Source of the DNA: Patescibacteria group bacterium
GTDB taxonomy: Bacteria > Patescibacteriota > Microgenomatia > UBA1406 > GWC2-37-13
Assembly: GCA_026415975.1 (NCBI GenBank)
Contig: JAOAFZ010000001.1
Coordinates: 1-64,000, forward strand
Length of the DNA: 64,000 bases
Direction of reading: 5' to 3'
Shown: one piece after another, positions 17,081 to 50,669 of the stretch
How the letters are laid out: each line of letters opens with the position of its first letter
How positions within the stretch are numbered: the first letter of the stretch is position 1
The notes under the pieces: generated by a model
What the model saw: only the letters and a program-made list of their open reading frames with translations
Databases searched by the model: none
What the model was told of the DNA's origin: nothing
Position numbers and translations under genes: made by a program

Positions 17081-20000
17081 ATGATAAAAAAGCGAGTGCT
17101 TTCCGCTTTGTTGGTTGGTTTTGCGGTTGCAGCCCTGATCTCTGTGTCCGTATCAAATAACGCGGAAGGTCGTCCTGGTTCTGTCAAAAATCCTAACAAC
17201 GGGGACTCCGTCCCTGCTCCTATTGTTCTCGAGGTCTTCCACTCCGATGTTTTTATTCTCCGGGGAACTAGTTTGCTGACAGCTAAATCCGGCATTACGG
17301 TCCAGCAGGGTGACAGAATCGAGACCGGTCCGGAGGGACGTGCTCAGATTGTGTACCCCAACGGTACCGTAACACGGTTGGATTCCGGGACTGTAATAAT
17401 TCTCCGTAAAGCACAACTGACACCCCAGCAAATTGAGATACTAATTGAACAGGGACAGGTCTGGTCTCGGATTACAGAACTACAAAAAGATGAAATGTAC
17501 AAGACTCTCTCTAAAAATGTATCGGCGATCGTGCGCGGTACGTCTTACGGCCATTTCGTCTCGAAAAACCGGACTGACCAGATTATGACAACCAAGGGAG
17601 AAGTTTCCGGCACCTGTCTTAACGAGACACAGCGTGCAGTTATTGCACGGAACCAGAAAATTGTTTTCACCTGTGACACCGAAGAAGTATTAATTCGACC
17701 AATAAGTAGTGAAGACCGTGCATCACCGTGGGTTGCGTTCAACCTGGATCAGGATGGGATACTGCTGGATCGGTTTGGTAAGTCGACTTATAAAGATGAA
17801 AGACCTGGTCGTCAGAGTTCAGGTGAAGTCGCGGGGGCCTCCAATTTCCTCCGACGTATCAGAGATACCGCAAGCGAGGTTGTTTCTACGGTAACCACTC
17901 AGGCTTCTGAAATAGTACGATCAGTTTCGTTGGGCATAGTAGCGAGCAATACGGAAACCTCTACAGTCTCGACTTTAGGAAGTAATACCGGTCCTGGTGC
18001 AGCGTCTCCGACTACCATTCCGTCACCTGGGGCTTCTGTGACACCGAAGACAACCGGGGTCCCTGGTGCCGTTGGCAATCCATCTCCGACAAAAATACTG
18101 AATACCCCGACGCCAACCGCGAAACCGCCGCTACCTCCCTCTATACCAACCGCGACACCGACAGAGCTTCCCCCGGAGCCAACTGTACCGCCTGAGCCGC
18201 AGGCAATCGCCCGTGTAAATCCCCAAGGAGGTGCTGCCGTCAAAATTACAGACCCGAGAACAGGTACTTCGGTAATCACGAGAGAGTATACAAACATCAT
18301 CTCTGGTACAACCGTGGAAACCATGAATGGCCATGCAGAAGTTGTATTCGACCAGGGACCGAATGCGGGATGTAGTCTCGATGGTGCTGCGAATAATCGC
18401 TGTAGTATAACCCGTATTGATTCCGGTTCAAAAATAATAGTTAATGGGCAAGTTACCGAATCAAACAACACCAATATTCAAATAATTTTCGGCAGAATAT
18501 GGAATCGAGTCAAAAATCTTACTGGTACCCGGGACACCTTTCAGTCTGAGGATGTGGGTAGTCTGGAGAATGGTATGGTAGCTACCGTGCGTGGGACATC
18601 ATACGGGCATTTAATCTCGGAAGGAGATGATGAGAGAATCAATCAGATCTTTACCTTAGAAGGCAGAGTTAGCGGACGCTGTAGAAATGATAAAAATGTG
18701 CAGGAAATCAACGAGAGGAAAAAAGGGCAATTCAGGTGTCAGGATAATGCAATCAAGACTCTGATTGATGATCTTGCCAAGGTGAAGGATGAAGATCGCG
18801 CCTGGCTCCTTTATAACGCAGAACGTGATATCCCCGATATTGGTAGTAGGAATAATCCGCCGAAGATTTCGATCATCCAGCCGGAAAATAATCAGGAATT
18901 TACGTTTAAGACATCAGATGAAGCATTCATTGATCTGAAAGCAGAAATTGAAGATGATGAATATCCCTTTGGCCCGGCCCGTACATTATGGGTATGCACA
19001 CGTATGCTCAATGGAGTAAGTGTCGCTTGTCCGTTTAACTTTGATGATGTATCAAGCACGGAAACTACTGCTAAAGTCTTTGACGATGGCCAGTACATTT
19101 TCCGGCTTGTAGCAACAGATGTTCTTGCTACAACTCTTGAGGAGGTAACAGTGAACGTAAAGATTGAGGCGAATGCATACAAACCGCCGGTCGCGAATGC
19201 TGGTCCGGATCAGGTAATTTTTCTCGACGAGACAGCCCAGTTGTTCGGAACAGTAACCTATGGTCCGCTTAACCATACCCGTGTGTTAATTAACTCATGG
19301 ACTCTAGTTCGGGGGCCGTTTCCGCTCGTCCATTTCGGGACTCCCATCTCGGTTAATACACTTTCGCCTACCACAACGGCTCAGTTTCTTTTTACGGGTA
19401 CGTACACCATCCGACTTACCTCTATTGATGGTTTGAATGTGGGTACCGATGATGTTCAAGTGGTGGTGCTCCCACGACCTGCTGTGGCAACCGCCACTCC
19501 CACTCCCACTCCTTCGCCGACTCATACTCCAGTGCCGAGTCCCACGGCTACAATAACGCCATCACCATCGCCATCACCATCACCTTCACCATTACCGTCT
19601 CCAGCCGCAACAGTCGAGCTTTCCAGCGATCTTTCCACTGCCAAGCTTCGAGTAACTAATCTGAGCGATCATTTCTCTGTTCTAAAGTACCTATTTACCT
19701 ACACTTCAGATTCAGGCGATCAGGGCATACAAGGACAGAAGTCACCATTGGAAGGAGAAATTTTTGAAGAAACTGTAACTCTGGGCACCTGTTCCTCCGG
19801 AGTATGTACCTATCACCTGAACCCGAGGAACTTTATTTTTGAAGTTGAATTGCAGTCTGCTAAAGGAGAAGAAAAACTGCGTTTAATCGCACCGGCATCT
19901 GATGTTACGACCACGCCCACGCCTACCCCAACAAACATGCCTACGAACACGCCGACCCCCATGCCGACAAGCACTCCCACTTCTACCCCGACCCCCACGC

Positions 20001-20431
20001 CTACCCCGACCCCCATGCCTACAACAACGCCCACGCCCACCCCAACAAACACGCCAACGCCTTCGCCCACCGTTGTTGCATCTCCAACTCCCTCGCCAAC
20101 ACCCACACTGGTACCTGCACCAATTATCTCCAGTGTAACCCGTACCGGCGGAAGTTGCGAAACGCTCCCATTTCTGGTAACTATATGTACTGTTACACTT
20201 GAGGTGACCGGGTTTAATTTCAGTGACGAAGTTATTGTTCAAACACGTAAGACCGGAACGGCGACTTATAATATAAACGGACTGGCAGGGCATGAAAAAT
20301 CGACATTATTACTCAGACCATCGTTTGCAGGATTGAGCCCAAATACTACCTACGATTTTGCAGTTTCTATCCTTGGCGGTCAAAAGGTCGAAAGTATCGG
20401 TGCGTTCAACACCAACTTCAACACCGACTAA
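17081..20431 (+). CDS. large secreted protein with two FecR domains, PKD/Ig-like domains and Thr-Pro linkers
   Basis: 1116 residues. An N-terminal hydrophobic segment (about 7-26) serves as signal or anchor. A FecR-like domain at about 50-200 carries GDRIETGPEGRAQIVYPNGT. A second FecR-like domain at about 385-560 repeats the same plan, including VRGTSYGHxxS in both. Two Ig/PKD-like domains follow (about 590-700 and 705-800, PPVANAGPDQVIFLDE). Two Thr/Pro/Ser linkers surround a small domain, and a final Ig-like domain ends the protein. FecR domains outside iron signalling often act as cell-surface sensors. The next gene is a CHASE2 adenylate cyclase 20 bases downstream, so the two probably work as one sensory pair. 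Whether it binds wall polymer or protein is unknown. Confidence 0.85.
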   Translation: MIKKRVLSALLVGFAVAALISVSVSNNAEGRPGSVKNPNNGDSVPAPIVLEVFHSDVFILRGTSLLTAKSGITVQQGDRIETGPEGRAQIVYPNGTVTRLDSGTVIILRKAQLTPQQIEILIEQGQVWSRITELQKDEMYKTLSKNVSAIVRGTSYGHFVSKNRTDQIMTTKGEVSGTCLNETQRAVIARNQKIVFTCDTEEVLIRPISSEDRASPWVAFNLDQDGILLDRFGKSTYKDERPGRQSSGEVAGASNFLRRIRDTASEVVSTVTTQASEIVRSVSLGIVASNTETSTVSTLGSNTGPGAASPTTIPSPGASVTPKTTGVPGAVGNPSPTKILNTPTPTAKPPLPPSIPTATPTELPPEPTVPPEPQAIARVNPQGGAAVKITDPRTGTSVITREYTNIISGTTVETMNGHAEVVFDQGPNAGCSLDGAANNRCSITRIDSGSKIIVNGQVTESNNTNIQIIFGRIWNRVKNLTGTRDTFQSEDVGSLENGMVATVRGTSYGHLISEGDDERINQIFTLEGRVSGRCRNDKNVQEINERKKGQFRCQDNAIKTLIDDLAKVKDEDRAWLLYNAERDIPDIGSRNNPPKISIIQPENNQEFTFKTSDEAFIDLKAEIEDDEYPFGPARTLWVCTRMLNGVSVACPFNFDDVSSTETTAKVFDDGQYIFRLVATDVLATTLEEVTVNVKIEANAYKPPVANAGPDQVIFLDETAQLFGTVTYGPLNHTRVLINSWTLVRGPFPLVHFGTPISVNTLSPTTTAQFLFTGTYTIRLTSIDGLNVGTDDVQVVVLPRPAVATATPTPTPSPTHTPVPSPTATITPSPSPSPSPSPLPSPAATVELSSDLSTAKLRVTNLSDHFSVLKYLFTYTSDSGDQGIQGQKSPLEGEIFEETVTLGTCSSGVCTYHLNPRNFIFEVELQSAKGEEKLRLIAPASDVTTTPTPTPTNMPTNTPTPMPTSTPTSTPTPTPTPTPMPTTTPTPTPTNTPTPSPTVVASPTPSPTPTLVPAPIISSVTRTGGSCETLPFLVTICTVTLEVTGFNFSDEVIVQTRKTGTATYNINGLAGHEKSTLLLRPSFAGLSPNTTYDFAVSILGGQKVESIGAFNTNFNTD
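19486..19610 (+). repeat. low-complexity Thr/Ser-Pro coding repeat 1
   Basis: Degenerate six-base units coding Thr-Pro and Ser-Pro inside the FecR-domain gene; an extended linker, likely prone to length change. Confidence 0.8.
19905..20115 (+). repeat. low-complexity Thr-Pro coding repeat 2
   Basis: A longer run of ACN-CCN units with occasional Met/Asn/Ser codons, just before the last Ig-like domain of the same gene. It would form a stiff spacer. Confidence 0.8.
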
Positions 20432-20437
20432 AGTAGG

Positions 20438-20443
20438 TACAAT
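20438..20443 (+). promoter_or_regulatory. -10 box before the adenylate cyclase gene
   Basis: TACAAT, eight bases before the ATG at 20452. It suggests that the cyclase can be transcribed separately from the upstream FecR gene. Confidence 0.45.
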
Positions 20444-20451
20444 ACGCATAT

Positions 20452-22422
20452 ATGAAACGCTGGTTGTATGCTCTTGTACTTGCGTCCGTAATTGCCGGGA
20501 TCTTTAGCCTACTCTTTCTCTCAGGGTTTTTTTCTACCTGGCAGGAGCGTGCCTCTGACAGTCTTTTTCTTCAGACTCGATCAAGGCCGGAAATAATTAT
20601 TGTCGGGATAGACGACAAATCAATTCAACAGATCGGTCGTTGGCCCTGGAACCGCGAGTATCACGCCCGACTTCTGGAAATACTGGGTACGCGTCCTGCG
20701 GTGATTGGCTATGATGTCGCTTTTTCGGAGCCGAGTGAGGCATCTGCAGATGCACGACTTGCTACTGCTTTTGGTGCCGCAAGTACTTCATTTGTGCCGG
20801 TAGAGGGCCAGGGTTTTACCTTTACTTCGGAGCCGGTCCCGGTACAAAGGGTAGTTCGGCCAATTTCCGCTATTGAGCAAGTAACAGGTGTTGGTGTGGT
20901 AAATACGATCGCAAGTATGGATAGTATCACGCGGCATATTCCCTTGAGGATTATTACTCCTGAGGGAGAAGTCTATGAACATTTTTCACTCCGGGTAGCA
21001 AGGGCATATCAGTCCAAAAAAGGAATAATAGGAGGTTTCCGGACAATTCCTCTCGAAGACGGTTTGATGAGAATTAATTTTTCAGGACCACCCCGTTCAT
21101 ACCGGACAGTACCGTTTATTGATGTCCTGAATGGTACAATTCCACCTTCTGAGTTTGATGGCAAGATTGTCCTGGTTGGCGCAACTGCAGTTAATCTACG
21201 GGACAACCAGGTAACTGCAGTCTCGGGGCGTGAGCCGATGATGGGTGTTGAAATTTTAGCCAATTCGATTCAGACCATTCTAGAGGAGCGTTTTTTACAA
21301 ATCGAACCTCAGTGGCATAGCATACTGCAAATATGGCTGCTTGCAATTGCAGTAGCTGCGGCAATGTCCATGATGCGACTTGTGTACGCAACAATTGTGA
21401 CGATTCTTCTCGCTGTCTTGCACTTACTTTTTGCGTTTTACTCCTTCGATTCAGGGGTAGTGCGCAACATTACATTTCCCATGCTGGTAGTGAGTGTTAC
21501 ATACAGTTTACTTTCACTTTATCGCGCGCTCTTTGAATACAACCAGCGGGTATTTTTAAAGCGGGCTTTTTCTCTTTACCTGGCACCACCGGTACTCGAG
21601 CAGATTTTACGAAATCCGGATCAGTTACGACTTGGTGGAGAAAAGAAGACGATGACGGTGTTTTTTGCCGATATCGTCGGGTTTACCTCGTTGTCGGAAC
21701 GTCTACCACCAGATGAGCTTTCGGCACTATTGAATGCGTATTTAACCAGAGTTTCGAAGATCATCTTTGCCAACGGGGGAGTAATAGACAAGTTTATTGG
21801 CGATGCGATCATGGCTTTTTGGAATGCACCGCTTACTGATCCAGAGCATGCATTAAACGCTTGTCGGGCAGCGCTTGGTGTAGAAAAAGAGGTAGAGGAG
21901 ATTTCACAGGAATGGAAGCATAAGAACTTGGATGGTTTCTCAGTCCGCATTGGGATTAATACCGGCGAAATGGTTGTTGGGAATATGGGCAGTGAAATGC
22001 GATTTGACTATACTGTCATTGGTGATAGTGTAAATATGGCATCCCGCCTGGAAGGAATTAACAGGGAGTATGGAACTAAAATTCTTATTTCCGGTGGAAC
22101 ATACAGAATCGTAGCAAATCATGTTGTAGCAAGGAAAATCGATAGAGTTGCTCTGAAAGGGAAACGAAAAGGAGACGATATCTATGAGCTGGTGAGAATC
22201 GGAAAACCGACGGCTGCGGAACAGATTTTTTTCCTAAAGTATGAAAAAGCCCTCAGCAGATACCAAAAAGGTGACTTTCATGCTGCTCTTAATGAATTCA
22301 GTTCTCTCGCAAAAGAGCACCCGGAGGATAAACCGGTCAGGGTTCTCATAGCGCGGTGTACACAGTTTATTTCTAGTCCACCCCCGAACTGGGATGGCAT
22401 TTATTATTCAACAGTAAAATGA
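20452..22422 (+). CDS. CHASE2-domain class III adenylate cyclase
   Basis: 656 residues. A first helix (about 5-27), an extracytoplasmic CHASE2 sensor (about 30-285), three further helices (about 292-358) and a cytoplasmic cyclase domain (about 398-580) are visible. Metal-binding Asp407 (FFADIVGFT) and Asp451 (GDAIMAFW), adenine-selecting Lys447 and Asp519 (FDYTVIGD), and transition-state Asn528 and Arg532 (VNMASRLE) are all present. The enzyme should therefore be active and make cAMP rather than cGMP. About 70 C-terminal residues look like a TPR-type tail. It pairs with the upstream FecR protein. A Crp/Fnr regulator lies elsewhere in this window. Confidence 0.92.
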   Translation: MKRWLYALVLASVIAGIFSLLFLSGFFSTWQERASDSLFLQTRSRPEIIIVGIDDKSIQQIGRWPWNREYHARLLEILGTRPAVIGYDVAFSEPSEASADARLATAFGAASTSFVPVEGQGFTFTSEPVPVQRVVRPISAIEQVTGVGVVNTIASMDSITRHIPLRIITPEGEVYEHFSLRVARAYQSKKGIIGGFRTIPLEDGLMRINFSGPPRSYRTVPFIDVLNGTIPPSEFDGKIVLVGATAVNLRDNQVTAVSGREPMMGVEILANSIQTILEERFLQIEPQWHSILQIWLLAIAVAAAMSMMRLVYATIVTILLAVLHLLFAFYSFDSGVVRNITFPMLVVSVTYSLLSLYRALFEYNQRVFLKRAFSLYLAPPVLEQILRNPDQLRLGGEKKTMTVFFADIVGFTSLSERLPPDELSALLNAYLTRVSKIIFANGGVIDKFIGDAIMAFWNAPLTDPEHALNACRAALGVEKEVEEISQEWKHKNLDGFSVRIGINTGEMVVGNMGSEMRFDYTVIGDSVNMASRLEGINREYGTKILISGGTYRIVANHVVARKIDRVALKGKRKGDDIYELVRIGKPTAAEQIFFLKYEKALSRYQKGDFHAALNEFSSLAKEHPEDKPVRVLIARCTQFISSPPPNWDGIYYSTVK

Positions 22423-28427: not shown

Positions 28428-29102
28428 TTATGGATCTATCGTATACCCAAAGCCACGAACAGTACGGATAACAGGTGGCAACTCGGGCTCTGGCGATGAG
28501 AGTTTTGAACGAAGTTTTCCGATAAACACCTCCACCGTATTGGGAAGAACATCGGCGTCGAACTCCCAAACAGTATCAATCAGTTTCTGCTTCGTGATTA
28601 CGAACCCGGCGTTTCGCATCAAGTACTCAAGGAGATCGTACTCACGCGCGGTGAGGGGGATTTTATGACCGTTGCGGTAGACTGCTGAAGATTTCGGATG
28701 TAATTCAAGGTCGCGTATCTTGAGTATGGGAGGTTCTATTCTCGGTGGCCTGCGACACAGGGCACGAAGACGGGCGAGTAGCTCCTCGAACGAGAAAGGC
28801 TTTCCCAAATAATCGTCCGCACCGCCATCTAAGCCCTCTACCCGATCGGAGAGTTGGCTTTTTGCGGTGAGCATTAGTATGGGGGTCTGATTGCCGGAAG
28901 AACGTAAATTCTGACACACTGTTAGACCATCCATGCCGGGCAACATGCGGTCAAGGATTATCACGTCGTACGACTCCGATGAAGCCAGATCGAATCCATC
29001 CGGGCCAGTAGTTGCAAGATCCACAACATATCGTTCGAGTTCCAGCCCTTTTTTTAGCGACCTTGCAATACGCGGTTCGTCTTCTACAACGAGGATGCGC
29101 AT
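28428..29102 (-). CDS. OmpR/PhoB-family response regulator
   Basis: 224 residues. The receiver domain has the acidic pair (VVEDEP), phosphoacceptor Asp51 (VIILDRMLPGMDG), and the conserved Thr and Lys (LTAK, GKPF). The C-terminal winged helix shows LTAREYDLLEYLMRNAG and the RTVRGFGYTI wing. It is first in the three-gene operon with the kinase and the Spy-like protein. A TATACT box ends six bases before its ATG. Confidence 0.96.
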   Translation of the reverse strand: MRILVVEDEPRIARSLKKGLELERYVVDLATTGPDGFDLASSESYDVIILDRMLPGMDGLTVCQNLRSSGNQTPILMLTAKSQLSDRVEGLDGGADDYLGKPFSFEELLARLRALCRRPPRIEPPILKIRDLELHPKSSAVYRNGHKIPLTAREYDLLEYLMRNAGFVITKQKLIDTVWEFDADVLPNTVEVFIGKLRSKLSSPEPELPPVIRTVRGFGYTIDP

Positions 29103-30328: not shown

Positions 30329-31242
30329 TAGCCACCCTCTAGAACTGCAATGGTAGGCAGATGTAAACGGGCAATTCGGGAAGCAATCACCGAGTAATCC
30401 TCATGATCAAGTGAAAAGCTACCGAGTGGATCACGGTGGAATGTGTCAAAACCAAGCGACACTACCAGAGCTGCCGGGGCAAAAGTACGAATGCTTGCGA
30501 GAGCATCTTCAAGAACTGAACAATATTCTTTTCCGAAGACATTATCCAGCAGTATGAAATTTCGGTTCGTGCCGTATCCTTTTCCTTCACCCTTTTCTGT
30601 TTCAAATCCTGAAGTAAAAGGATAGTGCTTGCGCGGATCACCATGAATTGAGATAGTAAGGACATCTGGATCGGTATAAAACAATTCCTGGGTTCCGTCT
30701 CCGTGGTGAAAATCAAGATCAAGAACTGCAATCCGTCCCGATTTCCGGAGAAGGATTACTGCGAGGGCAGAATTCGCAAGATAGCAGAACCCACCCATCT
30801 TTGAGCGTCCGGCATGGTGTCCCGGAGGGCGGGCAAGCGCAAATGCGAATTGACTACTGCTTTTTCTTACAGTTTTAACAGCATCTACCACCGTATTAGC
30901 ACTAGAAAGTGCAGTTCGCCAGATTGATGGAAAGGGATAAACAGAGGAATCCTTAATGAAAGGATTCATGGAAGGATCTAAATGATGATAATGATGATCC
31001 TTCCACTCGTTAGCGGAGCTCAGTGACTCAAGAGATTTCAGAAAACTCAGATACTCACTGCTATGTAGTTCGGTAAGTGAAGGAATCTCATCGGCTTCTG
31101 ATTTAAACAACACTGCGAGACCGCTCTTTTCTAGCGCACCTGCAATCAAGGTAATCCGTTCGGGTGTTTCCGGGCAATTCTCCGGCGGGTGATACCGGTG
31201 GTGTCCTGCCGGTATATATACCGGAACCCGATTGTTACTCAT
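30265..31242 (-). CDS. HDAC-family deacetylase (acetylpolyamine amidohydrolase-like)
   Basis: 325 residues from the ATG at 31242. Members remove acetyl groups from acetyl-lysine or acetylpolyamines using zinc. Visible residues are the HH pair (RPPGHHAGRSKMGGFCYLAN), the zinc Asp/His in LDLDFHHGDGTQE and the later zinc Asp in LGFDTFHRDPLG. The chosen start overlaps the stop of the upstream EpmA-like gene by eight bases; the frame could extend to 31305. Substrate is not predictable. The GNAT-like gene on the other strand makes an acetylation/deacetylation pair conceivable. Confidence 0.9.
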   Translation of the reverse strand: MSNNRVPVYIPAGHHRYHPPENCPETPERITLIAGALEKSGLAVLFKSEADEIPSLTELHSSEYLSFLKSLESLSSANEWKDHHYHHLDPSMNPFIKDSSVYPFPSIWRTALSSANTVVDAVKTVRKSSSQFAFALARPPGHHAGRSKMGGFCYLANSALAVILLRKSGRIAVLDLDFHHGDGTQELFYTDPDVLTISIHGDPRKHYPFTSGFETEKGEGKGYGTNRNFILLDNVFGKEYCSVLEDALASIRTFAPAALVVSLGFDTFHRDPLGSFSLDHEDYSVIASRIARLHLPTIAVLEGGYHDELGQAATSWVSGFLSGRQ

Positions 31243-32236
31243 ACTGTATAACAGCCAGATCGCGGATAGAACTAACTCCGGCAAATACCATTGCCAATCG
31301 CTCAACTCCTAGCGCAATCCCTGCTGTGGGTGGCATCTTCTCAAGAACATCCGCAAATTCAAAATCAGGGATATGTATGTTCATTCCCCTCTCTTTACGA
31401 ATGCGGTCTTCGTCACGAAGCCGTTTCTCCATAGCGGTTCTATCACGGTTATCAGAAGATGCATTTCCGCAGTTACCCAGTTCCAAACCTTCGATGTAGA
31501 TCTCCATTCGCTTTGCCGTTCCGGTTACCGGATCAATTTCAGCTGTGGCGGCGAGTGGTTGCGGATACTCGTATAGTATAGTTGGTTGACCATTGGTACC
31601 AAGATATGGCTCCACTTCCTGAGCATATATCTGCGACCAGACGTCTGTGTATGAAAACCCCTCTGTTGTGTACCCTTTTTTCCTGGCGCATTGCATAAAT
31701 TCCATTTCATCGTGGACATTGCCAATCCCGGCATATTCCCGGAATGCATCTGCAACTGTAATCTTTTCATACGCATCGAAACGAACCGTTTTCCCGTTGT
31801 ACAGGATCGTATCCGTACCGGAGAGTTTCTGCGCCAGCATACGAAACAGATGCAAGATATCAGTGGCGACGTCAAAATAGTCGCCCGCTACCTTGTAAAG
31901 TTCCAGCATAGTAAACTCACCGGAGTGACGGTCCGAATCCTGTTCACCATTGCGATAGCAGCGCATCAGAGCGTAGCAGCTACCCGCTCCAGCCGCAATC
32001 AGTCGCTTCAGGTACAGCTCGGGAGAGGGGGAAAGGTAACGGGGTACCCGGTTTGTCCCATAACGGTATTCGGTTGTATATATTTCCAGGTATGATTCGG
32101 GAATCAAGGCGGGAGTAAGAACGGGAACTTCAAAGCGTTCATACCCAAGCTCAGGGAGTACCGCATCAATTATTCGAAGCGTCTTTATGAGTGTACGGTG
32201 TGCAATAAAATGATCCGGTAAAGCAACAATAGACAT
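31235..32236 (-). CDS. epmA: EpmA/PoxA-like lysyl-tRNA synthetase paralog
   Basis: 333 residues, close to E. coli EpmA (325). It has only the class II catalytic core. There is no N-terminal anticodon-binding OB domain, which argues against an ordinary LysRS. Motif 2 (YALMRCYRNGEQDSDRHSGEFTMLELYK) and motif 3 (GIALGVERLAMVF) are clear. EpmA attaches beta-lysine to a lysine of elongation factor P. The partner genes epmB and efp are not in this window, so the target is inferred. A TATAAT box lies five bases before the ATG. The gene is co-directional and overlapping with the deacetylase. Confidence 0.85.
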   Translation of the reverse strand: MSIVALPDHFIAHRTLIKTLRIIDAVLPELGYERFEVPVLTPALIPESYLEIYTTEYRYGTNRVPRYLSPSPELYLKRLIAAGAGSCYALMRCYRNGEQDSDRHSGEFTMLELYKVAGDYFDVATDILHLFRMLAQKLSGTDTILYNGKTVRFDAYEKITVADAFREYAGIGNVHDEMEFMQCARKKGYTTEGFSYTDVWSQIYAQEVEPYLGTNGQPTILYEYPQPLAATAEIDPVTGTAKRMEIYIEGLELGNCGNASSDNRDRTAMEKRLRDEDRIRKERGMNIHIPDFEFADVLEKMPPTAGIALGVERLAMVFAGVSSIRDLAVIQYE

Positions 32237-32241
32237 AGCCG

Positions 32242-32247
32242 ATTATA
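32242..32247 (-). promoter_or_regulatory. -10 box of the epmA-like gene
   Basis: TATAAT on the minus strand, five bases before the ATG at 32236. Confidence 0.55.
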
Positions 32248-32267: not shown

Positions 32268-32289
32268 AAATGTGATCTAGATCACTTAT
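32268..32289 (+). promoter_or_regulatory. CRP-type operator of the aspA-pfl operon
   Basis: TGTGA-N6-TCACT with a 14-base perfect palindrome GTGATCTAGATCAC (32272-32285), flanked by AAA on the left. It differs from the ideal E. coli CRP site only in the right flank. Its centre (32278.5) is about 41.5 bases upstream of the start expected from the -10 box at 32308. That is the class II activator position, replacing the -35 element. It also lies upstream of the divergent epmA-like gene. Confidence 0.75.
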
Positions 32290-32307
32290 AGTTTCGTACC
32301 TTACCGT

Positions 32308-32313
32308 TACTAT
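32308..32313 (+). promoter_or_regulatory. -10 box of the aspA-pfl operon
   Basis: TACTAT, seven bases before the ATG at 32321. No -35 match is seen; the CRP-type operator covers that place. Confidence 0.55.
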
Positions 32314-32320
32314 ATCGTTT

Positions 32321-33643
32321 ATGAAACAGTCAAACCTGTATGGCGAGCAGACACGCATGGCAGTCAACAACTTTCCCTATCCGGTGCATCCGGTACGCCG
32401 TGAGCTTATATACGCTATTGCTGAGGTAAAAAAAGCGGCAGCGATTGCAAATTTACGTGCCGGGAATCTGGATGAGTCGAGAGCGCAGGCGATTGCCAAA
32501 GCGGCCGATGAAGTTTCGGCAGGAATGCACGACGAGCAGTTCATTACCCCCTCGATACAGGGTGGAGCCGGAACTTCTATGCACATGAATGTGAACGAGG
32601 TTTTGGCAGCCCGTGCAGAACAGATCCTTCGCCGTAAAGGAATTTCGGTAAAGGTACATCCCAATGATCATGTTAACATGTCGCAGTCTACCAATGACGT
32701 TAACCCCAGTGCTCTCAGAATTGCTACGATCCGATTGGGATGTGATTTGATTGCTACTATAGGTCAGCTTACGGCTGCACTGCGCAAAAAAGCGGATGAG
32801 TTTGCGGGTGTCAAAAAGCTTGCACGGACGCATATGCAGGACGCGGTTCCGACCACCCTTGGCGCGGAGTTCCGTTCATATGCCGATATTGTCGCCCGGA
32901 ATCAACGCCGGATCGAGGAAGCGCTCGCATATCTCTACGAGCTGAATCTGGGAGGGACAGCAATCGGAAACTCTATAAACGCAAGCGAGGCATATCGTGA
33001 GCATGTATACTATGAATTGCAGAAGATCGTCAAAATTCCTGTCTGTCCTGCAGAAAACATGATGCCGGGCACGAGCAGCGGACAGGATTTCTGCCATCTC
33101 TCCGCCACACTCACCATCATGTCAACGGACCTGTCAAAGATATCCACAGATATCCGCTTTCTCTCCAGCGGGCCCCGAGGTGGTATCGGGGAGATACGTC
33201 TCAAAGCATTGCAACCGGGTTCTTCGATTATGCCCGGCAAAGTAAATCCGGTCATCCCCGAAAGTATGAATCAGATTCATTATTATATTTCAGGAAAGAA
33301 CCTGACGATCCACCAGGCTGCAGAAGGTGCCCATCTGGAACTTGGTATTATGTTCCCGGTCATTGCAGACAGTATTCTTTCTCAACTTACCGTGCTGAAT
33401 GCAGGAATTGCCGCATTTACCGAGAACTGTATCCTGCCAATGGAAGCAGACACGCAGCGTTGCAGCAAACTCCTCGAAGAATCGTCGGCTTATGCCACCC
33501 TGCTCACACCGGAGCTTGGGTACGACACAGTATCCAGGGTGGTCAAGAAAGCAATAGAAACAAAAAAGACTATCCGCGAAACCCTAGTTGAGGACGGGTT
33601 GATTGATCAAGATAGATTTGACCGTATTGTTAGCATTTTATAA
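32321..33643 (+). CDS. aspA: aspartate ammonia-lyase (aspartase/fumarase superfamily)
   Basis: 440 residues. Aspartase splits aspartate into fumarate and ammonia. The [15 protein letters not shown] segment follows the aspartase pattern (QxGAGTSxxMNxNEV) rather than the fumarase QTGSGTQSNMN, and [15 protein letters not shown] is the superfamily signature with the catalytic serine loop. It is slightly shorter than E. coli AspA (478). It is the first gene of an operon with pflB, pflA and the VKOR-PyrD fusion; pflB starts four bases after its stop. Fumarase activity is not excluded. Confidence 0.88.
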
Positions 33644-33647
33644 TCCT

Positions 33648-35843
33648 ATGAAAAGAACTATCGATGTCGGCGCCTTTGTCAGCAAACACATACGTCCCTA
33701 TGATGGTGACGAATCATTCCTTTCCGGGCCTTCCGAGAAGACCCGGAAACTTTGGAAGATCTGTGTTTCTCTCTTTAAGAAAGAGCGCGAAAAAGGAGGA
33801 ATACTTGCGGTAGATACCAAAACGATCTCTTCTATTACCAGTCATTCCCCAGGTTATATTGACAAGGAACTCGAATGCATTGTCGGACTTCAGACCGATG
33901 CGCCGTTGAAACGGGCAATAAAACCTTTCGGCGGAGTACGCGTAGTAGAGCAGGCCTGTGCAGAAAACGGGCTCAAGCTTGACCCTTCAGTTTCGAAGCT
34001 TTTCCGGACGTACCGGAAGTCACATAATGACGGTGTTTTTGATGTTTATACCGACGAAATGCGTCTTTTCCGTTCTACCGGCCTTCTTACAGGCCTCCCC
34101 GACAACTATGCCCGCGGCCGGATCATCGGAGACTACCGTCGGGTGGCGTTATACGGCACCGATGTCCTGATTCAGGCTAAAAAAGATGATCTGCGTAAAC
34201 TTGATGGCCCGATGTCTGATGAGCGCATTCGGCTGCGGGAAGAGGTTAGTGAACAGATACGGGCTCTTTCCCTGATGGCCGAAATGGCTAAAGGATATGG
34301 TTTTGATATTACAAAACCTGCCCGTAATGCCAAAGAGGCTGTTCAGTGGACGTATTTTGCGTTTCTGGCCGCACTTAAAGAGCATGATGGTGCCGCAATG
34401 TCTCTCGGCAATGTGAGTAGCTTTCTGGATATATTTATCGAACGGGATTTATCCAGAGGAATTCTGACAGAAGAAGAAGCGCAGGAACTTATCGATCATT
34501 TCGTCATGAAGTTGCGGCTTGTACGCCATCTTCGCATGGATGAGTATAATAAACTGTTTTCCGGAGATCCGACCTGGTTGACAGAATCAATCGGCGGGAT
34601 GTTTCGCGACGGTAGGCACAAGGTAACAAAAACCTCATATCGTTTCCTTCAGACACTGTATAATCTCGGGCCGTCTCCCGAGCCGAATCTCACCGTGCTC
34701 TGGTCTCCGCGGCTTCCTCTGGCCTTTCGCCGGTTTTGTGCGAAGGTATCGGTAGACACGTCTTCGATTCAGTATGAGAATGATGACCTGATGCAGGAGT
34801 GCTCCGGCTCCGACGATTATGGCATTAGTTGCTGCGTTTCCCAGTTAAAAACCGGGAAACAAATGCAGTATTTTGGTGCCCGCTGTAACCTTGCCAAAGC
34901 GCTCCTGCTGGCAATAAATGCCGGAAGAGATGAGCACACCGGGAAAATGCTGGTGCCTGAGATTCAACCCCTTCCGGATGGTCCACTTGATTACCAGGAA
35001 GTAATGAAGCGATTTCGTGTCGTTATGGCTCATGTAGCGCGCACGTACGTAAACACGATGAATGTCATACATTACATGCATGACAAGTACTATTACGAGC
35101 GGGCTCAGATGGCATTACTTGATACTGATGTAGAACGGGTGATGGCATTTGGTATTGCCGGTCTTTCGGTTGTTGCGGACTCATTGTCAGCGATCAGATA
35201 CGCCAAAGTAACTGCAGAACGCAATGAGGAAGGCTTAAGCATTGCGTTTACCGCCGATGGAGAGTTTCCATGCTTCGGGAATGATGATGACCGTGTTGAT
35301 CTAATAGCCCGTGAGCTGGTTGTTCAATTTATGGAAGAGCTGCGGAAACATCATGTATACCGTAATGCAACACCCACCCTCTCGATACTTACAATTACCT
35401 CCAATGTAGTATACGGGAAAAAAACCGGAGCTACTCCGGATGGCAGGGCAGCAGGCGAACCATTTGCACCCGGTGCGAATCCAATGCACGGGCGCGATAC
35501 GCATGGGGCGATTGCATCTTTAAATAGTGTTACTAAGCTGCCTTATGAGTTTGCACGTGACGGGATCTCCAATACATTTTCAGTCGTGCCCAAAGCATTG
35601 GGTTCCGATCGGGAGGAGCAGATTTCCAACCTGGTCGCACTAATCGACGGCTACTTCATTAAAAAGGCACAGCATTTAAATGTCAACGTTTTGAGCCGTG
35701 ATATTCTGATGCGTGCTATGGAACATCCCGAAGAGTATCCGCAGCTGACTATCCGGGTTTCAGGGTACGCCGTAAACTTTATAAAGTTGACGAGGGAGCA
35801 GCAACAGGAAGTACTGTCGCGCAGCTTCTTCGAACACATGTAA
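33648..35843 (+). CDS. pflB: pyruvate formate-lyase
   Basis: 731 residues from the ATG at 33648. A longer frame into aspA exists but is not a plausible start. The enzyme turns pyruvate and CoA into acetyl-CoA and formate without oxygen. The adjacent active cysteines in GISCCVSQL and the glycyl-radical motif [10 protein letters not shown] with Gly706, 25 residues from the end, agree with E. coli PflB rather than diol dehydratases. The activase follows two bases later. The acetyl-CoA could feed the mevalonate operon. Confidence 0.94.
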
Positions 35844-35845
35844 GC

Positions 35846-36583
35846 GTGGGTACCCTTCCGCTCAAGGTTCACTCGTTTGAATCTCTCGGCACGCACGAAG
35901 GGCCGGGAATCAGGCTCGTCGTGTTTTTGCAGGGATGCCACCTGCGCTGTTTGTACTGCCACAACCCTGACACCTGGCATCTGGAGGGTGGTACCTTCGT
36001 TATGCCGGAAGAAATCCTGACAATGCTGGAAAAAGAGCGGCCGTATTTTTCTTCCGGAGGGGGCTTGACAGTGTCCGGGGGTGAACCGCTTATACAGCGC
36101 CATGCTCTTTATGACCTTTTTTCTATGGCCCGCAAGGCCGGATTCAATACCGCTCTCGATACCAACGGCGCGATTCTGGACGATGCAACTAGAAATCTCT
36201 TAACTGAGACCGATTTGGTACTTCTGGATCTAAAAGATGTTCGTGAAGAGCATCATAAAAAACTAACCGGCGTATCAAATTATGTTCCCCTCGCTTTTGC
36301 AGATTACCTGGAGAAAATCGGGAAGCGATATTGGGTACGTCATGTACTGGTTCCCGGCTACACCTTGCAGCCTGAGCACCTGCATTTACTTGGGAGGCGG
36401 CTAGCCGGCCGAAAGGCGCTTGAGCGCCTGGAGATTTTACCGTACCATACCTATGGAGTCTATAAATATAAAGAACTCGGTATTCCTTATCAGTTGTCAG
36501 GTCTGCAGCCGCCCGGCCCCGAACAGGTAGCGGAAGCGAAGCAGATCCTGCAGCAGTACATTCCTGATGTCCGTATTCGCTAG
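35846..36583 (+). CDS. pflA: pyruvate formate-lyase activating enzyme
   Basis: 245 residues, GTG start. A radical-SAM enzyme that forms the glycyl radical on PflB. The 4Fe-4S ligands Cys31, Cys35 and Cys38 lie in CHLRCLYCHNPDTW, and TVSGGEPL is the SAM-binding GGE motif. There is no extra ferredoxin insert, so it is the short PflA type. The start is two bases after pflB. The 3' end overlaps the next gene by 17 bases, which implies translational coupling. Confidence 0.95.
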   Translation: MGTLPLKVHSFESLGTHEGPGIRLVVFLQGCHLRCLYCHNPDTWHLEGGTFVMPEEILTMLEKERPYFSSGGGLTVSGGEPLIQRHALYDLFSMARKAGFNTALDTNGAILDDATRNLLTETDLVLLDLKDVREEHHKKLTGVSNYVPLAFADYLEKIGKRYWVRHVLVPGYTLQPEHLHLLGRRLAGRKALERLEILPYHTYGVYKYKELGIPYQLSGLQPPGPEQVAEAKQILQQYIPDVRIR

Positions 36584-38123
36584 TGCCTTGGTATCACTAC
36601 TGCTTGCATTGACTGGTCTGGCGGATTCGGCATACCTGACCTGGGAACATTTTAACCCGTCTCCGATTCCCTGTAGTGATCTGCCGTTCACCAATTGCGG
36701 CGCAGTTCTCTCCAGTGATTATGCCATGGTGTTCGGGATTGTACCTCTTGCAGTTCTCGGAGTGCTATATTACGCAACATTTGCGGTATCAGCTCTCGTG
36801 TACCTGATCAGACCACGCATTGTATTGCTTCGTTGGCTTTTTCTCTTGAGTAGCGCGGGATTTCTGGCATCCCTGTGGTTCGTTTTCTTACAACTTGTAG
36901 TAATCAAAGCGATCTGCATCTACTGTATGATCTCGGCAGTAACTAGTTGTGCGCAATTTCTCTGGTTACGAATTACCCGCTTCCATGAGTACCGGCTGAC
37001 TATAATTTTCGTGCTCGGATTTACCTATCGCCATCTAGTAAAAAGGATCTTTTTTCTGATTGACCCGGAGTATATTCACCACGTTCTTACCGGATTCGGC
37101 GAACTTCTAGGCGCAATCCGGCCGGTTAAGGCGGTACTGCGTATCATTTTGGGAACCCGGTATCCTGTACTGGAGCAGGTCGTTGCTGGGATTACTTTTC
37201 ACAGTCCGGTAGGACTCGCAGCTGGATTTGATTATGAAGCAAAGCTGACACAGACTCTGGAGCCGCTCGGTTTCGGTTTTCAGACAGTAGGAACCATTAC
37301 TAATCAGCCCTGCGAGGGCAATCCTAGACCACGTCTCGGACGGCTTCCCATGTCCCGTTCTTTACTGGTGAACAAAGGGTTCAGGAATCCGGGGGCGAAG
37401 GCAATAATCAGGAAATTACGAAAGCAGTCTTTTCCAATTCCTCTTGGAGTGAGCATCGGTACTACAAATTCATCTTCCATAACGACATTAGAAGAGGCAG
37501 TGGATGATATTATCAGCGCATTCCAACTCTTTGAGGCATCGAAAGTTCAGCACGCGTACTACGAACTTAACATCAGCTGCCCAAATCTTCAGGTAGGTGT
37601 TTCGTTTTATGATACAGGACATCTTGATACACTGCTAACTGCACTGGACAAACTCAAGCTTAAAAAACCCGTATTCGTAAAAATGCCGATCGAACTTGAT
37701 GATGCGCCCTTTATTGCGCTCCTGGATGTAATCGTAACGCATTCACCGGCAGGTGTCATTATCGGAAATCTATTAAAAAACCGCAAGGATAAGGCACTTC
37801 GCCGTGAAGAAGTACGTAAGTGCGGCAAAGGTAACTTCAGCGGCAAACCTACTGAATCCCGATCAAATGAACTGATACAGCTTTCATACACGCACACCGG
37901 AGGGAATATGATAATTATCGGTTGTGGTGGAATCTTCAGCGCAGATGATGCGTATCGGAAAATTACGCTGGGTGCTTCACTGGTTCAGTTAATTTCGGGT
38001 ATGATATTCCAGGGTCCGCAGCTAGTTTCCGAGATCAATGCGGGGCTCGTGGAGCGCCTGCGGAAAGATGGTTATATTTACATTTCAGAGGCAGTAGGCA
38101 CCAGGGCTACCAAGAAGAAATAA
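36567..38123 (+). CDS. fusion of VKOR thiol oxidase and dihydroorotate dehydrogenase
   Basis: 518 residues in one uninterrupted frame. Residues 1-140 are a four-helix VKOR domain with the loop cysteines Cys36 and Cys44 and the active CxxC pair Cys117/Cys120 (CIYC). VKOR passes electrons from new disulfides to quinone. Residues about 150-505 are PyrD with a class 2-like N-terminal helical segment (DPEYIHHVL), SPVGLAAGFD, and the FMN phosphate site GCGGIFSADDAYRKITLGASLVQ. The catalytic base position in NISCPN is Cys338, as in class 1 enzymes; class 2 enzymes have Ser. The Lys of the AAGxDK motif is also replaced (AAGFDY). PyrD oxidises dihydroorotate to orotate in pyrimidine synthesis. The electron acceptor here is uncertain. 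Confidence 0.88.
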   Translation: MSVFASALVSLLLALTGLADSAYLTWEHFNPSPIPCSDLPFTNCGAVLSSDYAMVFGIVPLAVLGVLYYATFAVSALVYLIRPRIVLLRWLFLLSSAGFLASLWFVFLQLVVIKAICIYCMISAVTSCAQFLWLRITRFHEYRLTIIFVLGFTYRHLVKRIFFLIDPEYIHHVLTGFGELLGAIRPVKAVLRIILGTRYPVLEQVVAGITFHSPVGLAAGFDYEAKLTQTLEPLGFGFQTVGTITNQPCEGNPRPRLGRLPMSRSLLVNKGFRNPGAKAIIRKLRKQSFPIPLGVSIGTTNSSSITTLEEAVDDIISAFQLFEASKVQHAYYELNISCPNLQVGVSFYDTGHLDTLLTALDKLKLKKPVFVKMPIELDDAPFIALLDVIVTHSPAGVIIGNLLKNRKDKALRREEVRKCGKGNFSGKPTESRSNELIQLSYTHTGGNMIIIGCGGIFSADDAYRKITLGASLVQLISGMIFQGPQLVSEINAGLVERLRKDGYIYISEAVGTRATKKK

Positions 38124-38134
38124 TTTATTTTCGG

Positions 38135-38785
38135 TTATACTCCAAGCAACATTTCTTCAAGTTTTTCGAGGTTGTTAACAATTATGCAACCCTCTTGAAT
38201 AGTAATCAGATTCTCATTTTCAAGTTTTTTTATCTCGCGGCTGAAAGTTTCGCGAGATGTGCCCGATAACGTAGCCAGATCTTTATGCGTAATACGAAGC
38301 GGTATCCGAGTTCCCCCAGGTGTTGGTTCGCCAAACCGGTATGCGGCATTCAGGATGGTATATACAACCTTCATCGTGGCACTTCCGGTAAGAGCATACT
38401 CCAGCCGCAGCAATAGACCGTCGGTTCCACGGTAAACCCTGGAAAGCAGGTCAAGCAGGATTTCCGGCTTGCGGCTGATGTATTGAATCACGTCAGCCCC
38501 CGGCGCCAGTCGATACGAAACCGGAGTGATTGCTACGAAATAATACCGGTTTTTTGTTTCATTCAAAATTAAAGACATCGGAAAGTAGGCGAACGGCTTA
38601 AACAGGTTTACGGTTACTTCTTCACCCTTCCGGGTAATTGCATACTCCCGGACGATACCACTGGTTAGATAGATAATTCCAGGTGGAGCGTCGCCGGCAT
38701 GAATGAGCGTTGTGCCTTTTTCTTTTGAATACTCCGGATAGCGGGAGAAAAAGATATCTAGCTGTGAAACGATATCCGGTTTCAT
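38135..38785 (-). CDS. Crp/Fnr-family transcription regulator
   Basis: 216 residues. A cyclic-nucleotide-binding-type beta barrel (about 20-110) is followed by the long dimer helix and a winged helix (about 150-215). The recognition helix TSRETFSREIKKLE contains Arg178, Glu179 and Arg183, the equivalents of the three residues with which E. coli CRP reads GTGA half-sites. The pocket differs from CRP: the Gly-Glu pair is Pro-Met (FPMSLIL) and the Arg-Ser pair is Arg-Tyr. Only one cysteine is present, so it is not an Fe-S Fnr. The effector may be cAMP bound differently, another ligand, or none. It lies 12 bases from the end of the convergent VKOR-PyrD gene and is divergent from ldhA. Confidence 0.9.
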   Translation of the reverse strand: MKPDIVSQLDIFFSRYPEYSKEKGTTLIHAGDAPPGIIYLTSGIVREYAITRKGEEVTVNLFKPFAYFPMSLILNETKNRYYFVAITPVSYRLAPGADVIQYISRKPEILLDLLSRVYRGTDGLLLRLEYALTGSATMKVVYTILNAAYRFGEPTPGGTRIPLRITHKDLATLSGTSRETFSREIKKLENENLITIQEGCIIVNNLEKLEEMLLGV

Positions 38786-38868: not shown

Positions 38869-39861
38869 ATGAAGCAGTATATATTTGAAGCTAAACCATG
38901 GGAAGCGGATATTCTCCGGGAGCAGTTTCCGGATGCAACCTTTATAGATGAACCGCTAACAGAAGATAACGCAGGCAATTTTGGCGATGCAACAATTGTA
39001 TCGGTATTTGTAAATTCCCGTGTTACCCGTGCTGCACTTGAAGCATTGCCGGGGTTACAATGCATTGCCACCCGCTCTACCGGGTTTGATCATATTGATA
39101 CCGGGTATGCAAAAGAAAGGGGTATCGTCGTGTGTAATGTTCCCGAATATGGCAGCAGGACGGTGGCGGAGTTTACCTTCGGATTACTGCTGACACTTAC
39201 GAGAAAGATTTTTTCCGGAATCCGGCAATCGAAAGAGTGCATTTTCGATACCAGTACGCTGCAAGGAACGGATCTCTTTGGCAAGACGATCGGAGTTATC
39301 GGAATGGGTAGGATCGGCAGTGAGGTGATAAAACTTGCTCATGGCTTCGGAATGAACGTACTGGTGTATACCGCACATCCCCGTCCTGAACAGGCAGAAG
39401 AGTTGAACTTCCGGTTTATGTCACTGGAAGATCTTTTGGCACACTCCGATGTAGTAACTTTGCACTTGCCGCTTACTCCCGAAACTACACACATTCTGAA
39501 TAAAGATACCATGGCGAAGATAAAAAAAGGCGCCTACCTGATTAACACTGCCCGTGGACCCCTTATTGATACCGAAGCCCTCCTGGTGGCTCTTGAGGAC
39601 GGCACCCTCGCCGGTGCCGGTCTGGATGTGCTTGAGGAGGAAAAAGAGATTAATGACGAGCTTGAACTCTTAACCTCGCATGACAAACACAATGTAGACT
39701 TTAAAACAATGTGTATAGATCATGCACTCATGCATCATCCACGGGTAGTAGTAACACCACACAATGCGTTTAATACCAAAGAAGCATTGGAACGGATACT
39801 GCATACCACGATCGATAACATCAAAAAGTTTCTCGAAGGTCAGGCGCAGAATCGGGTTTAG
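38869..39861 (+). CDS. ldhA: D-lactate dehydrogenase / D-2-hydroxyacid dehydrogenase
   Basis: 330 residues, usual for LdhA. It reduces pyruvate to D-lactate and regenerates NAD+. The Rossmann motif GVIGMGRIG (about 142-150), catalytic Arg in INTARGPLID, Glu in GLDVLEEE and His in TPHNAF are present. The C-terminal pattern with an insertion after the Glu motif suits D-LDH more than glycerate dehydrogenase, but substrate remains an inference. It sits beside the Crp/Fnr gene and the pfl operon, in keeping with a fermentation cluster. Confidence 0.88.
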   Translation: MKQYIFEAKPWEADILREQFPDATFIDEPLTEDNAGNFGDATIVSVFVNSRVTRAALEALPGLQCIATRSTGFDHIDTGYAKERGIVVCNVPEYGSRTVAEFTFGLLLTLTRKIFSGIRQSKECIFDTSTLQGTDLFGKTIGVIGMGRIGSEVIKLAHGFGMNVLVYTAHPRPEQAEELNFRFMSLEDLLAHSDVVTLHLPLTPETTHILNKDTMAKIKKGAYLINTARGPLIDTEALLVALEDGTLAGAGLDVLEEEKEINDELELLTSHDKHNVDFKTMCIDHALMHHPRVVVTPHNAFNTKEALERILHTTIDNIKKFLEGQAQNRV

Positions 39862-48468: not shown

Positions 48469-49647
48469 ATGGATGTCCTGAAGCATTCCCTTAAGCGTGA
48501 TTTTCTTTCCGCTTCCGACCAATACTGCATGACTCTCCGATCTCTTAATCCTGTATCCCGACGTGAGTATCTTTGTACTGAGCTGGGGGTTTCATTACCT
48601 GCAATCGAAAGGGCCCTTGCTGATACTGAAGATAGTGTCAGAATAGAAAATTTGGTTGGCGCAGTATCGATCCCGCTGGGAGTTGCCGGACCGGTTCAAA
48701 TTCATGGTGAATCTGTGTCAGGCAAACGATTTGTTCCCCTTGCAACAACCGAGGGTGCCCTGGTTGCATCGGTTAATCGTGGTTGTAAGGCGATCACAGA
48801 TTCCGGTGGCGTGTTTACTGCCTCTGATGATACCGGCATGACCCGGGGACCGGTTTTTGTTACTGCATCACTTGCAGACAGCCGCAAACTGGAAGCTTGG
48901 CTAGCCAGGAATGAGAACCTGATCCGGGAAGCGGCTGAATCGACGTCTGCCCACCTTTCCTATGTCTCGATGCAGGTACGTGCTCTCGCACGCTCAGTCT
49001 ACGTCAGATTCGTATTCCGGACCGGGCAGGCAATGGGGATGAACATGGTAACCTTAGCAACTCAAAAAATTGTTGAACTAGTGGAGGACAAGACGAACGC
49101 ACGATGTGTAGCAGTTGCAGGTAACTATGACATCGACAAAAAGCCGGCCTGGCTCAATGTTATTGAAAACAGGGGAAAAAGAGTCCGTGCGGAAGCGGTG
49201 ATTCATTCTACTGTCATTTCATCTGTTCTAAAGACTTCTGCATCGGCAATCAACGAGACCTGGGTAGAAAAATGTGTACAGGGATCGTATCTTGCCGGAT
49301 CACTTGGCTTTAACTGTCAATTTGCAAATATCGTTGCCGCAGTTTTTGCTGCCACTGGACAGGATCTTGCTCACGTGGTAGAGGGCAGTGCCGGCATCAC
49401 GACAGTTCAGGTCCTTGAGGGTGGAGATCTGTATTGTGCAGTCTATCTTCCGGCGGTGCTTACCGCAACAGTCGGCGGAGGAACAAAATACAAGACTCAG
49501 CAGGAGGCACATGCCATTCTTGGCAATCCAGATGCATCCGGACTTGCGGAAATTATCGGAGCTGCTGTGCTTGCAGGTGAGTTGTCATTGCTTGCATCGT
49601 TATCAGTGCATACCCTTGCTCGGTCGCACCGGGAGTTAGGCAGGTAA
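48469..49647 (+). CDS. hydroxymethylglutaryl-CoA reductase, class I
   Basis: 392 residues. It reduces HMG-CoA to mevalonate with NADPH and commits carbon to isoprenoids. Catalytic Glu95 (TTEGALVAS), a Lys in YDIDKKPAW (224 or 225), Asp299 (GQDLAHVVEGS) and His387 (near the C-terminus) are present. Sequence style (EGALVASVNRGCKA, GMNMV) is that of class I, as in archaea and eukaryotes. No membrane anchor. It heads a seven-gene operon and its stop is two bases before the HMG-CoA synthase ATG. Confidence 0.95.
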   Translation: MDVLKHSLKRDFLSASDQYCMTLRSLNPVSRREYLCTELGVSLPAIERALADTEDSVRIENLVGAVSIPLGVAGPVQIHGESVSGKRFVPLATTEGALVASVNRGCKAITDSGGVFTASDDTGMTRGPVFVTASLADSRKLEAWLARNENLIREAAESTSAHLSYVSMQVRALARSVYVRFVFRTGQAMGMNMVTLATQKIVELVEDKTNARCVAVAGNYDIDKKPAWLNVIENRGKRVRAEAVIHSTVISSVLKTSASAINETWVEKCVQGSYLAGSLGFNCQFANIVAAVFAATGQDLAHVVEGSAGITTVQVLEGGDLYCAVYLPAVLTATVGGGTKYKTQQEAHAILGNPDASGLAEIIGAAVLAGELSLLASLSVHTLARSHRELGR

Positions 49648-49649
49648 TT

Positions 49650-50669
49650 ATGGCAGGCATCATATCCTACGGATTTTATATACCCAGATCACGTATCCTG
49701 GTTCAAGAGATCGCCCGTCATCATCGGAAAAATGCGAATGACATAATCAGTTCACTGGGTGTATTTTCGAAGACAGTTGCAGCCCGTGACGAAGATACCG
49801 CTACGCTAGCACTCGAAGCAGCAACGATGGCGCTCGGAAAGGGAGATCCGACACTGATCGATGCAGTGTATGCCGGATCAGAGACTCACCCGTACGCAGT
49901 AAAACCCACTGCGACCATCGTTGCCGAATGGCTGGGAATCGGCAACGAGTATGCGGCATTCGATACGCAGTTTGCTTGCAAAGCAGCAACAGGAGCGCTT
50001 ATTGCCGCATTCGGTCAGGTGAAATCAGGTGATATCAAGCAAGCACTGATAATCGGAGCCGATAAAGCAACGGGAAAGCCCGGAGATGCGCTTGAGTATA
50101 CGGCAGCCTCGGCAGCAGTTGCTTTGATTATTGGCAATCAGGATACCATCCTTGATCTTGAGGGAAGCTACTCGTTTACTTCTGACACTCCGGATTTCTG
50201 GCGTCGGCACGGGGTAAAGTACCCGTCTCACGGAGGCCGGTTTACCGGAAAACCAGCGTATTTTACTCATGTAGCGGGAGCAGTGAACGGCTTGCTTGCT
50301 AAACTGGGCCGGAAGCCCGATGATTTTGACCACGTTGCATTCCATTCGCCAAACGGCAGATTCCCGCGCGAAGCTGCAACTGCGCTCAACTTTTCTCAGG
50401 CACAACTGGAGAACTCGCTGGTTGTTACAGAACTTGGTAATTCGTATGCAGCCTGTTCTTTGATGGCCTTAACTGCAGTTCTTGATGTTGCAGAGCCAGG
50501 TCAGAGAATCCTCCTGGTATCATATGGGTCAGGAGCAGGCTCAGACGCGTTTTCTTTTACGGTAACCGGGCGGCTTCCCGCAATGAGACACAATCTGCGC
50601 AAGAAAATGAAAAATTATGAAATCATAGACTATGGCACATACCTGCGCCAGTTACATCTTATTGTATGA
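49650..50669 (+). CDS. hydroxymethylglutaryl-CoA synthase, archaeal type
   Basis: 339 residues. It condenses acetyl-CoA and acetoacetyl-CoA. Nucleophile Cys110 (TQFACKAATG), the Glu of GSETHPYAVKP (about 78) and His232 (VAFHSPNGRFP) are seen. Short length and the GSETHPYAVKPT motif mark the archaeal-type synthase. It overlaps the thiolase gene by four bases. In archaea this enzyme, a thiolase and a DUF35 protein form one complex that channels acetoacetyl-CoA, and the same three genes are adjacent here. Confidence 0.95.
   Translation: MAGIISYGFYIPRSRILVQEIARHHRKNANDIISSLGVFSKTVAARDEDTATLALEAATMALGKGDPTLIDAVYAGSETHPYAVKPTATIVAEWLGIGNEYAAFDTQFACKAATGALIAAFGQVKSGDIKQALIIGADKATGKPGDALEYTAASAAVALIIGNQDTILDLEGSYSFTSDTPDFWRRHGVKYPSHGGRFTGKPAYFTHVAGAVNGLLAKLGRKPDDFDHVAFHSPNGRFPREAATALNFSQAQLENSLVVTELGNSYAACSLMALTAVLDVAEPGQRILLVSYGSGAGSDAFSFTVTGRLPAMRHNLRKKMKNYEIIDYGTYLRQLHLIV

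What the first reader, a model, noticed from the sequence alone, without database searches (positions are those of the whole stretch)
32268..32321. Near-ideal CRP operator at class II position before the pfl operon
TGTGATCTAGATCACT is almost the ideal E. coli CRP site and is centred about 41.5 bases before the expected transcription start, with no -35 element. The local Crp/Fnr protein (38135-38785) keeps the Arg/Glu/Arg reading residues, and an adenylate cyclase lies 10 kb away. This suggests a complete CRP-type regulon controlling fermentation.
Basis: partly seen in the sequence, partly recalled or inferred. Interest (0 to 1): 0.75.

Follow-up and report, generated by a model that had tools for sequence, protein, structure and literature searches.

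The report
CRP-type operator, apparently not cAMP-controlled
A very small-genome bacterium has a textbook "CRP" DNA switch in front of its fermentation genes, and it looks like a real activator site, but the protein that should bind it seems to have lost the pocket for cAMP and probably answers to another signal, perhaps redox state.

Summary
32268-32289 reads AAATGTGATCTAGATCACTTAT; TGTGATCTAGATCAC occurs once in the 1.31-Mb genome, and two other perfect TGTGATCnnGATCACA sites exist where 0.005 are expected. The site centre (32278.5) is the exact midpoint between two divergent start codons: epmA-like (32236, -) and aspA (32321, +), which heads aspA-pfl-pflA-VKOR/pyrD. TACTAT 21 bp past the site gives class II geometry (-41.5) with a leaderless mRNA. 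In genomes whose Crp homolog keeps R-E-x3-R, such sites are enriched (50 vs 5 control), and a -10 exactly 21 bp past the site recurs 9 times against 1.35 expected (control sites: once). The operator and a CRP-like mechanism are well supported in silico. The cAMP part is not: the only CNBD regulator in the genome has lost most cAMP contacts (G71>P, E72>M, T127>L, S128>L), and 17 of 19 genomes with this regulator have no class III cyclase. Neighbours point to thiol/redox control: crp lies beside or near a VKOR-type gene in six genomes. The pfl placement is unique to this genome; no sampled pfl or aspA relative carries the site. New member of a known kind, effector unknown.

The parts
32268..32289 (.). 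CRP-type operator; core TGTGATCTAGATCACT at 32271-32286, centre 32278.5
32308..32313 (+). -10 element TACTAT of aspA, starting 21 bp after the operator (centre at -41.5)
   Evidence: spacing tested
32242..32247 (-). -10 element TATAAT of the epmA-like gene, 5 nt before its ATG, 23 bp from the operator
32321..33643 (+). aspA: aspartate ammonia-lyase / class II fumarase family, first gene of the operon
   Evidence: start supported by the N-termini of relatives
33648..35843 (+). pfl: pyruvate formate-lyase (likely start ATG at 33648; the ORF opens with TTG at 33603)
35846..36583 (+). pflA: pyruvate formate-lyase activating enzyme
36567..38123 (+). VKOR domain fused to quinone-dependent dihydroorotate dehydrogenase
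31235..32236 (-). EpmA-like lysine ligase (LysRS paralog), divergent gene sharing the operator
38135..38785 (-). the only Crp/Fnr-type regulator in the genome; helix SRETFSR (R178, E179, R183), pocket remade (P69, M70, N79, R80)
20452..22422 (+). CHASE2 + class III nucleotide cyclase (proposed source of cAMP; link to the operator not supported)

Best explanation
32271-32286 is a genuine operator of the genome's single Crp/Fnr-superfamily regulator (38135-38785). As a dimer with a CRP-like recognition helix it binds TGTGAT-N4-ATCACA and activates aspA-pfl-pflA-VKOR/pyrD from a class II position (centre -41.5, no usable -35, leaderless transcript). Because the site is the midpoint of the divergent promoters, it may also act on the epmA-like gene. 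Shown in silico: the site, its genome-wide recurrence, its association with R-E-x3-R regulators and the -41.5 spacing. Inferred: binding, activation and the signal. The signal is probably not cAMP. A thiol/oxygen/redox-related cue is the best guess, from neighbours and targets (VKOR, DsbD-like, FeS-assembly gene, O2-sensitive PFL).
For: Two more perfect sites in the genome. One Crp-type HTH protein over cut-off and one CNBD protein in the genome. Enrichment 50 vs 5 control in nine genomes with a RETxSR helix; 17 vs 15 in nine with other helices (one repeat-rich genome left out); 75 vs 39 in 38 without the protein (Mann-Whitney P 0.005, or 0.014 without this genome; on data). -10 at 21 bp: 9 vs mean 1.35, Poisson P 4e-6; control sites 1. 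Sites upstream of crp itself in relatives (L025, L027). VKOR-type gene beside or near crp in G001, G006, G013, G035, G047 and here, with class II sites at two of them. Pocket substitutions G71>P, E72>M, T127>L, S128>L. No class III cyclase in 17 of 19 genomes with the regulator.
Against: No binding or expression data. The locus is unique to this genome, so this particular site has no phylogenetic footprint. Only three strong sites in the genome: one lies at -30.5 before an FeS-assembly gene (repressor-like position) and one at the 3' end of ung, far from a start codon. No site before this genome's own crp. Several sites with up to 1 mismatch in relatives lie inside genes. The redox reading rests on gene neighbourhood only. 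Cyclases of other classes were not searched.
Confidence: 0.7

Rival explanations
1. Classical cAMP-CRP: the CHASE2 cyclase makes cAMP, the local regulator binds it and activates fermentation genes at this site.
For: A cyclase with a complete-looking catalytic domain is present; this regulator is the only CNBD protein in the genome, so it is the only candidate receptor of that kind; R80 could stand in for the cassette arginine (alignment ambiguous by one residue).
Against: An invariant Pro replaces the cassette Gly, whose main-chain N-H contacts the ligand (PMC12937710); E72, T127 and S128 are lost; 17 of 19 genomes with the regulator have no class III cyclase.
Confidence: 0.17
2. The regulator needs no ligand (like SdrP or DdrI), or binds a small acid as NtcA binds 2-oxoglutarate, and its level or another metabolite sets the response at the same operator.
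For: NtcA is the best PDB match by profile (E 1.8e-35) and among the best by fold; ligand-free members are known (PMC12937710).
Against: The NtcA Arg129 position is not Arg here and the cassette Gly is Pro; no direct evidence for any effector.
Confidence: 0.35
3. The site acts mainly on the divergent epmA-like gene, or represses both promoters, rather than activating aspA-pfl.
For: Equal distance to both ATGs; epmA has the better -10 (TATAAT); other sites of the family sit at repressor-like positions (L037, L168).
Against: Only the aspA side has the recurrent 21-bp spacing; the epmA side has 23 bp.
Confidence: 0.2
4. Chance palindrome without function.
For: 11 of 100 shuffled windows contain a match at up to 1 mismatch; not conserved at this locus because the locus itself is not conserved.
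Against: Two more perfect copies in the genome, exact placement between divergent promoters, class II spacing shared with other sites.
Confidence: 0.08

Closest known systems
E. coli CRP (CAP) and class II CRP-dependent promoters
   Same: Operator TGTGA-N6-TCACA, R-E-x3-R recognition helix, centre at -41.5, no usable -35
   Different: cAMP contacts G71, E72, T127, S128 not kept; leaderless transcripts; very small genome with few sites
NtcA (cyanobacterial 2-oxoglutarate-responsive regulator)
   Same: Closest solved relative by profile and close in predicted fold
   Different: Site is TGTGA type rather than GTA-N8-TAC (recalled); Arg129 ligand contact not kept; cassette Gly is Pro
Clp / SdrP-type family members that do not use cAMP as activator
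   Same: CRP/FNR fold with a non-cAMP signal or none (PMC12937710); Clp also reads a CRP-like site (recalled)
   Different: c-di-GMP binding or cavity salt bridges not tested here; different neighbourhood (VKOR, 2-hydroxyacid dehydrogenase)

Membership tests
CRP/FNR superfamily | N-terminal cNMP-type beta-barrel plus C-terminal Crp HTH | tested here: met
   PF00027 and PF13545 over cut-off; AlphaFold model pLDDT 86.8; Foldseek to MtbCRP, GlxR, NtcA
CRP-type DNA specificity | R-E-x3-R recognition helix and TGTGA half-sites | tested here: met
   R178, E179, R183; sites clearly enriched only with this helix
cAMP receptor protein (CRP proper) | phosphate binding cassette (Gly-Glu...Arg-Ser) and Thr/Ser contacts to adenine | tested here: not met
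   G71>P, E72>M, R82>N or R (ambiguous), S83>R or Y, T127>L, S128>L; below the NCBIfam CRP cut-off, 38 vs 266 bits
cAMP receptor protein (CRP proper) | binds cAMP | not testable with these tools
   needs purified protein
class II CRP-dependent promoter | activator centred at -41.5 with a -10 and no good -35 | tested here: met
   21-bp spacing to the -10, recurrent across genomes; the transcription start itself is not mapped
FNR (oxygen sensor) | Cys ligands for a 4Fe-4S cluster, TTGAT half-sites | tested here: not met
   a single Cys in the protein, near the C-terminus; sites are TGTGAT
NtcA | 2-oxoglutarate contacts Arg88, Arg129, Glu134 | tested here: inconclusive
   Arg129 position is not Arg; R80 may equal Arg88; far below the NCBIfam NtcA cut-off, 53 vs 245 bits

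The most novel reading that the evidence does not exclude
A lineage of very small-genome bacteria runs a CRP-coded regulon (same operator, same recognition residues, same class II geometry) with a rebuilt, non-cAMP pocket that reports disulfide/quinone redox state alongside its constant partner VKOR, and this genome has recruited a laterally gained aspA-pfl fermentation operon into it.
Probability: 0.25. Interest if true: 0.7.

Novelty: new member of a known kind. Interest (0 to 1): 0.45.

Why it matters
Transcription control in bacteria with such reduced genomes is hardly described in the open papers searched. This gives a concrete operator motif, a regulator whose helix predicts the motif across genomes, a promoter geometry and a short target list, all cheap to test in vitro. 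It also warns against inferring cAMP control from an ideal CRP site plus a nearby cyclase.

Tried and rejected
Footprinting at the same locus failed: aspA relatives lie mostly in pyrimidine operons or alone and carry no site, and pfl relatives in other families carry none. The 19 matches in G037 were rejected as sites because most belong to a dispersed repeat with paired TGTGAGCCTCATCACA / TGTGATGTACTTCACA. An early count with TGTGATCnnGATCACA at up to 2 mismatches also showed excess in Crp-positive genomes (64 vs 16), but that sum includes G037. FNR-type Fe-S sensing was rejected for lack of cysteines. The script printed centres one base too close to the start; the true value is -(20.5 + spacing), as used here. 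Paper searches on regulators of this phylum found nothing usable.

Full report
Observation. The window reads AAATGTGATCTAGATCACTTAT at 32268-32289, 20 of 22 letters of the symmetric CRP consensus (recalled). The window alone is weak evidence: one match to TGTGATNNNNATCACA at up to 1 mismatch, 0.13 expected, 11 of 100 shuffles reach one. The whole genome (1.31 Mb, 96.6% complete) is stronger. The exact 15-mer occurs only here, but two other perfect palindromes of the same subtype, TGTGATCTTGATCACA and TGTGATCTCGATCACA, are present, where 0.005 copies of TGTGATCnnGATCACA are expected.

Surroundings. The site lies in an 84-bp gap between an EpmA-like gene (31235-32236, -) and aspA (32321-33643, +), followed by pfl, pflA and a VKOR-dihydroorotate dehydrogenase fusion. 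Its centre, 32278.5, is exactly midway between the two ATGs. Both promoters look leaderless: TATAAT ends 5 nt before the epmA ATG and TACTAT ends 7 nt before the aspA ATG; crp and the 2-hydroxyacid dehydrogenase gene beside it show the same layout. The distance from operator to TACTAT is 21 bp, which is the class II spacing (-41.5); on the epmA side it is 23 bp.

The regulator. 38135-38785 is the only protein in the genome over the Crp-HTH cut-off and the only one with a cyclic-nucleotide-type domain. It has SRETFSR, matching the CRP reading residues R180/E181/R185. Homologs occur in 19 of 57 relatives, this genome included. Counting TGTGATNNNNATCACA at up to 1 mismatch against the reversed pattern gives 50 vs 5 in nine genomes whose homolog has RETxSR, 17 vs 15 in nine with other helices, and 75 vs 39 in 38 without it. 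One further genome, G037, was left out because its matches are mostly a repeat. The helix groups were assigned after the alignment was seen, and the genomes are related, so the P values (0.005, and 0.014 without this genome) are indicative only.

Promoter geometry. Over 34 mostly intergenic sites in RETxSR genomes, a -10-like TAxxxT (at least 4 of 6) starts exactly 21 bp after the site nine times, against a mean of 1.35 per position (Poisson P 4e-6). At control sites (in genes, or in genomes without the regulator or with another helix) it does so once. One of the nine is the site that prompted the test. This supports class II activation, including at VKOR genes in G013 and G047. Other sites sit near -20 to -30 and would repress, as CRP-family proteins often do. 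Some relatives carry a site before crp itself; this genome does not.

The signal. Aligned to E. coli CRP, the protein has P for G71, M for E72, N or R for R82, and L for T127 and S128. The Pro and the Phe before it are invariant in 21 homologs. In CRP and NtcA the main-chain N-H of the cassette Gly contacts the ligand (PMC12937710), which a Pro cannot do. A CHASE2 class III cyclase does exist at 20452-22422, but only two of the 19 genomes with the regulator have one. cAMP is thus unlikely, though not excluded, since no other receptor candidate is visible. Nearest solved relatives are NtcA by profile and MtbCRP, GlxR and NtcA by fold.

Likely role. In G001, G006 and G035 a short VKOR-like gene follows crp (all three score below Pfam's cut-off, 20-25 vs 27.5 bits, E 2e-5 to 7e-4); in G013 and G047 a full VKOR lies next to or one gene from crp and carries a site; here VKOR is part of the fourth gene of the operon, which ends beside crp. 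A DsbD-like gene in G006 and G035, and an FeS-assembly gene here, also lie at sites. A 2-hydroxyacid dehydrogenase (51% identical) diverges from crp both here and in G013. Together with oxygen-sensitive PFL this suggests redox-linked control; this step is inference.

Limits. aspA and pfl relatives in 372 genomes of the class carry no site where upstream DNA was read, pfl was found in no other sampled member of the family, and no close relative is held, so this one site cannot be footprinted.

Noticed in passing
36567-38123: One 518-aa ORF joins a VKOR domain (residues 9-132) to a quinone-dependent dihydroorotate dehydrogenase (from about residue 153): two quinone-linked enzymes in one chain.
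   Followed up: partly
G037 contigs C2, C12, C25, C27, C28, C31, C38, C39, C43; L186: A dispersed repeat with paired palindromes TGTGAGCCTCATCACA and TGTGATGTACTTCACA, often 9 bp apart, in a relative; mimics CRP sites.
   Followed up: no
17081-22422: FecR-domain protein with proline/threonine-rich stretches directly upstream of a CHASE2 class III cyclase; PF00211 is rare among relatives (3 of 57).
   Followed up: no
48469-51826: HMG-CoA reductase, HMG-CoA synthase-like and thiolase-like genes in a row, suggesting a mevalonate-type pathway in a 1.3-Mb genome.
   Followed up: no
window, several genes (e.g. 6935-9172, 28428-29102, 38135-38785, 38869-39861): -10 elements 5-8 nt before start codons and few Shine-Dalgarno motifs, suggesting widespread leaderless transcripts.
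   Followed up: partly
33603-35843: pfl has 67-73% identity to pfl of other families in the class and was not found in other sampled members of its own family, suggesting lateral gain.
   Followed up: partly
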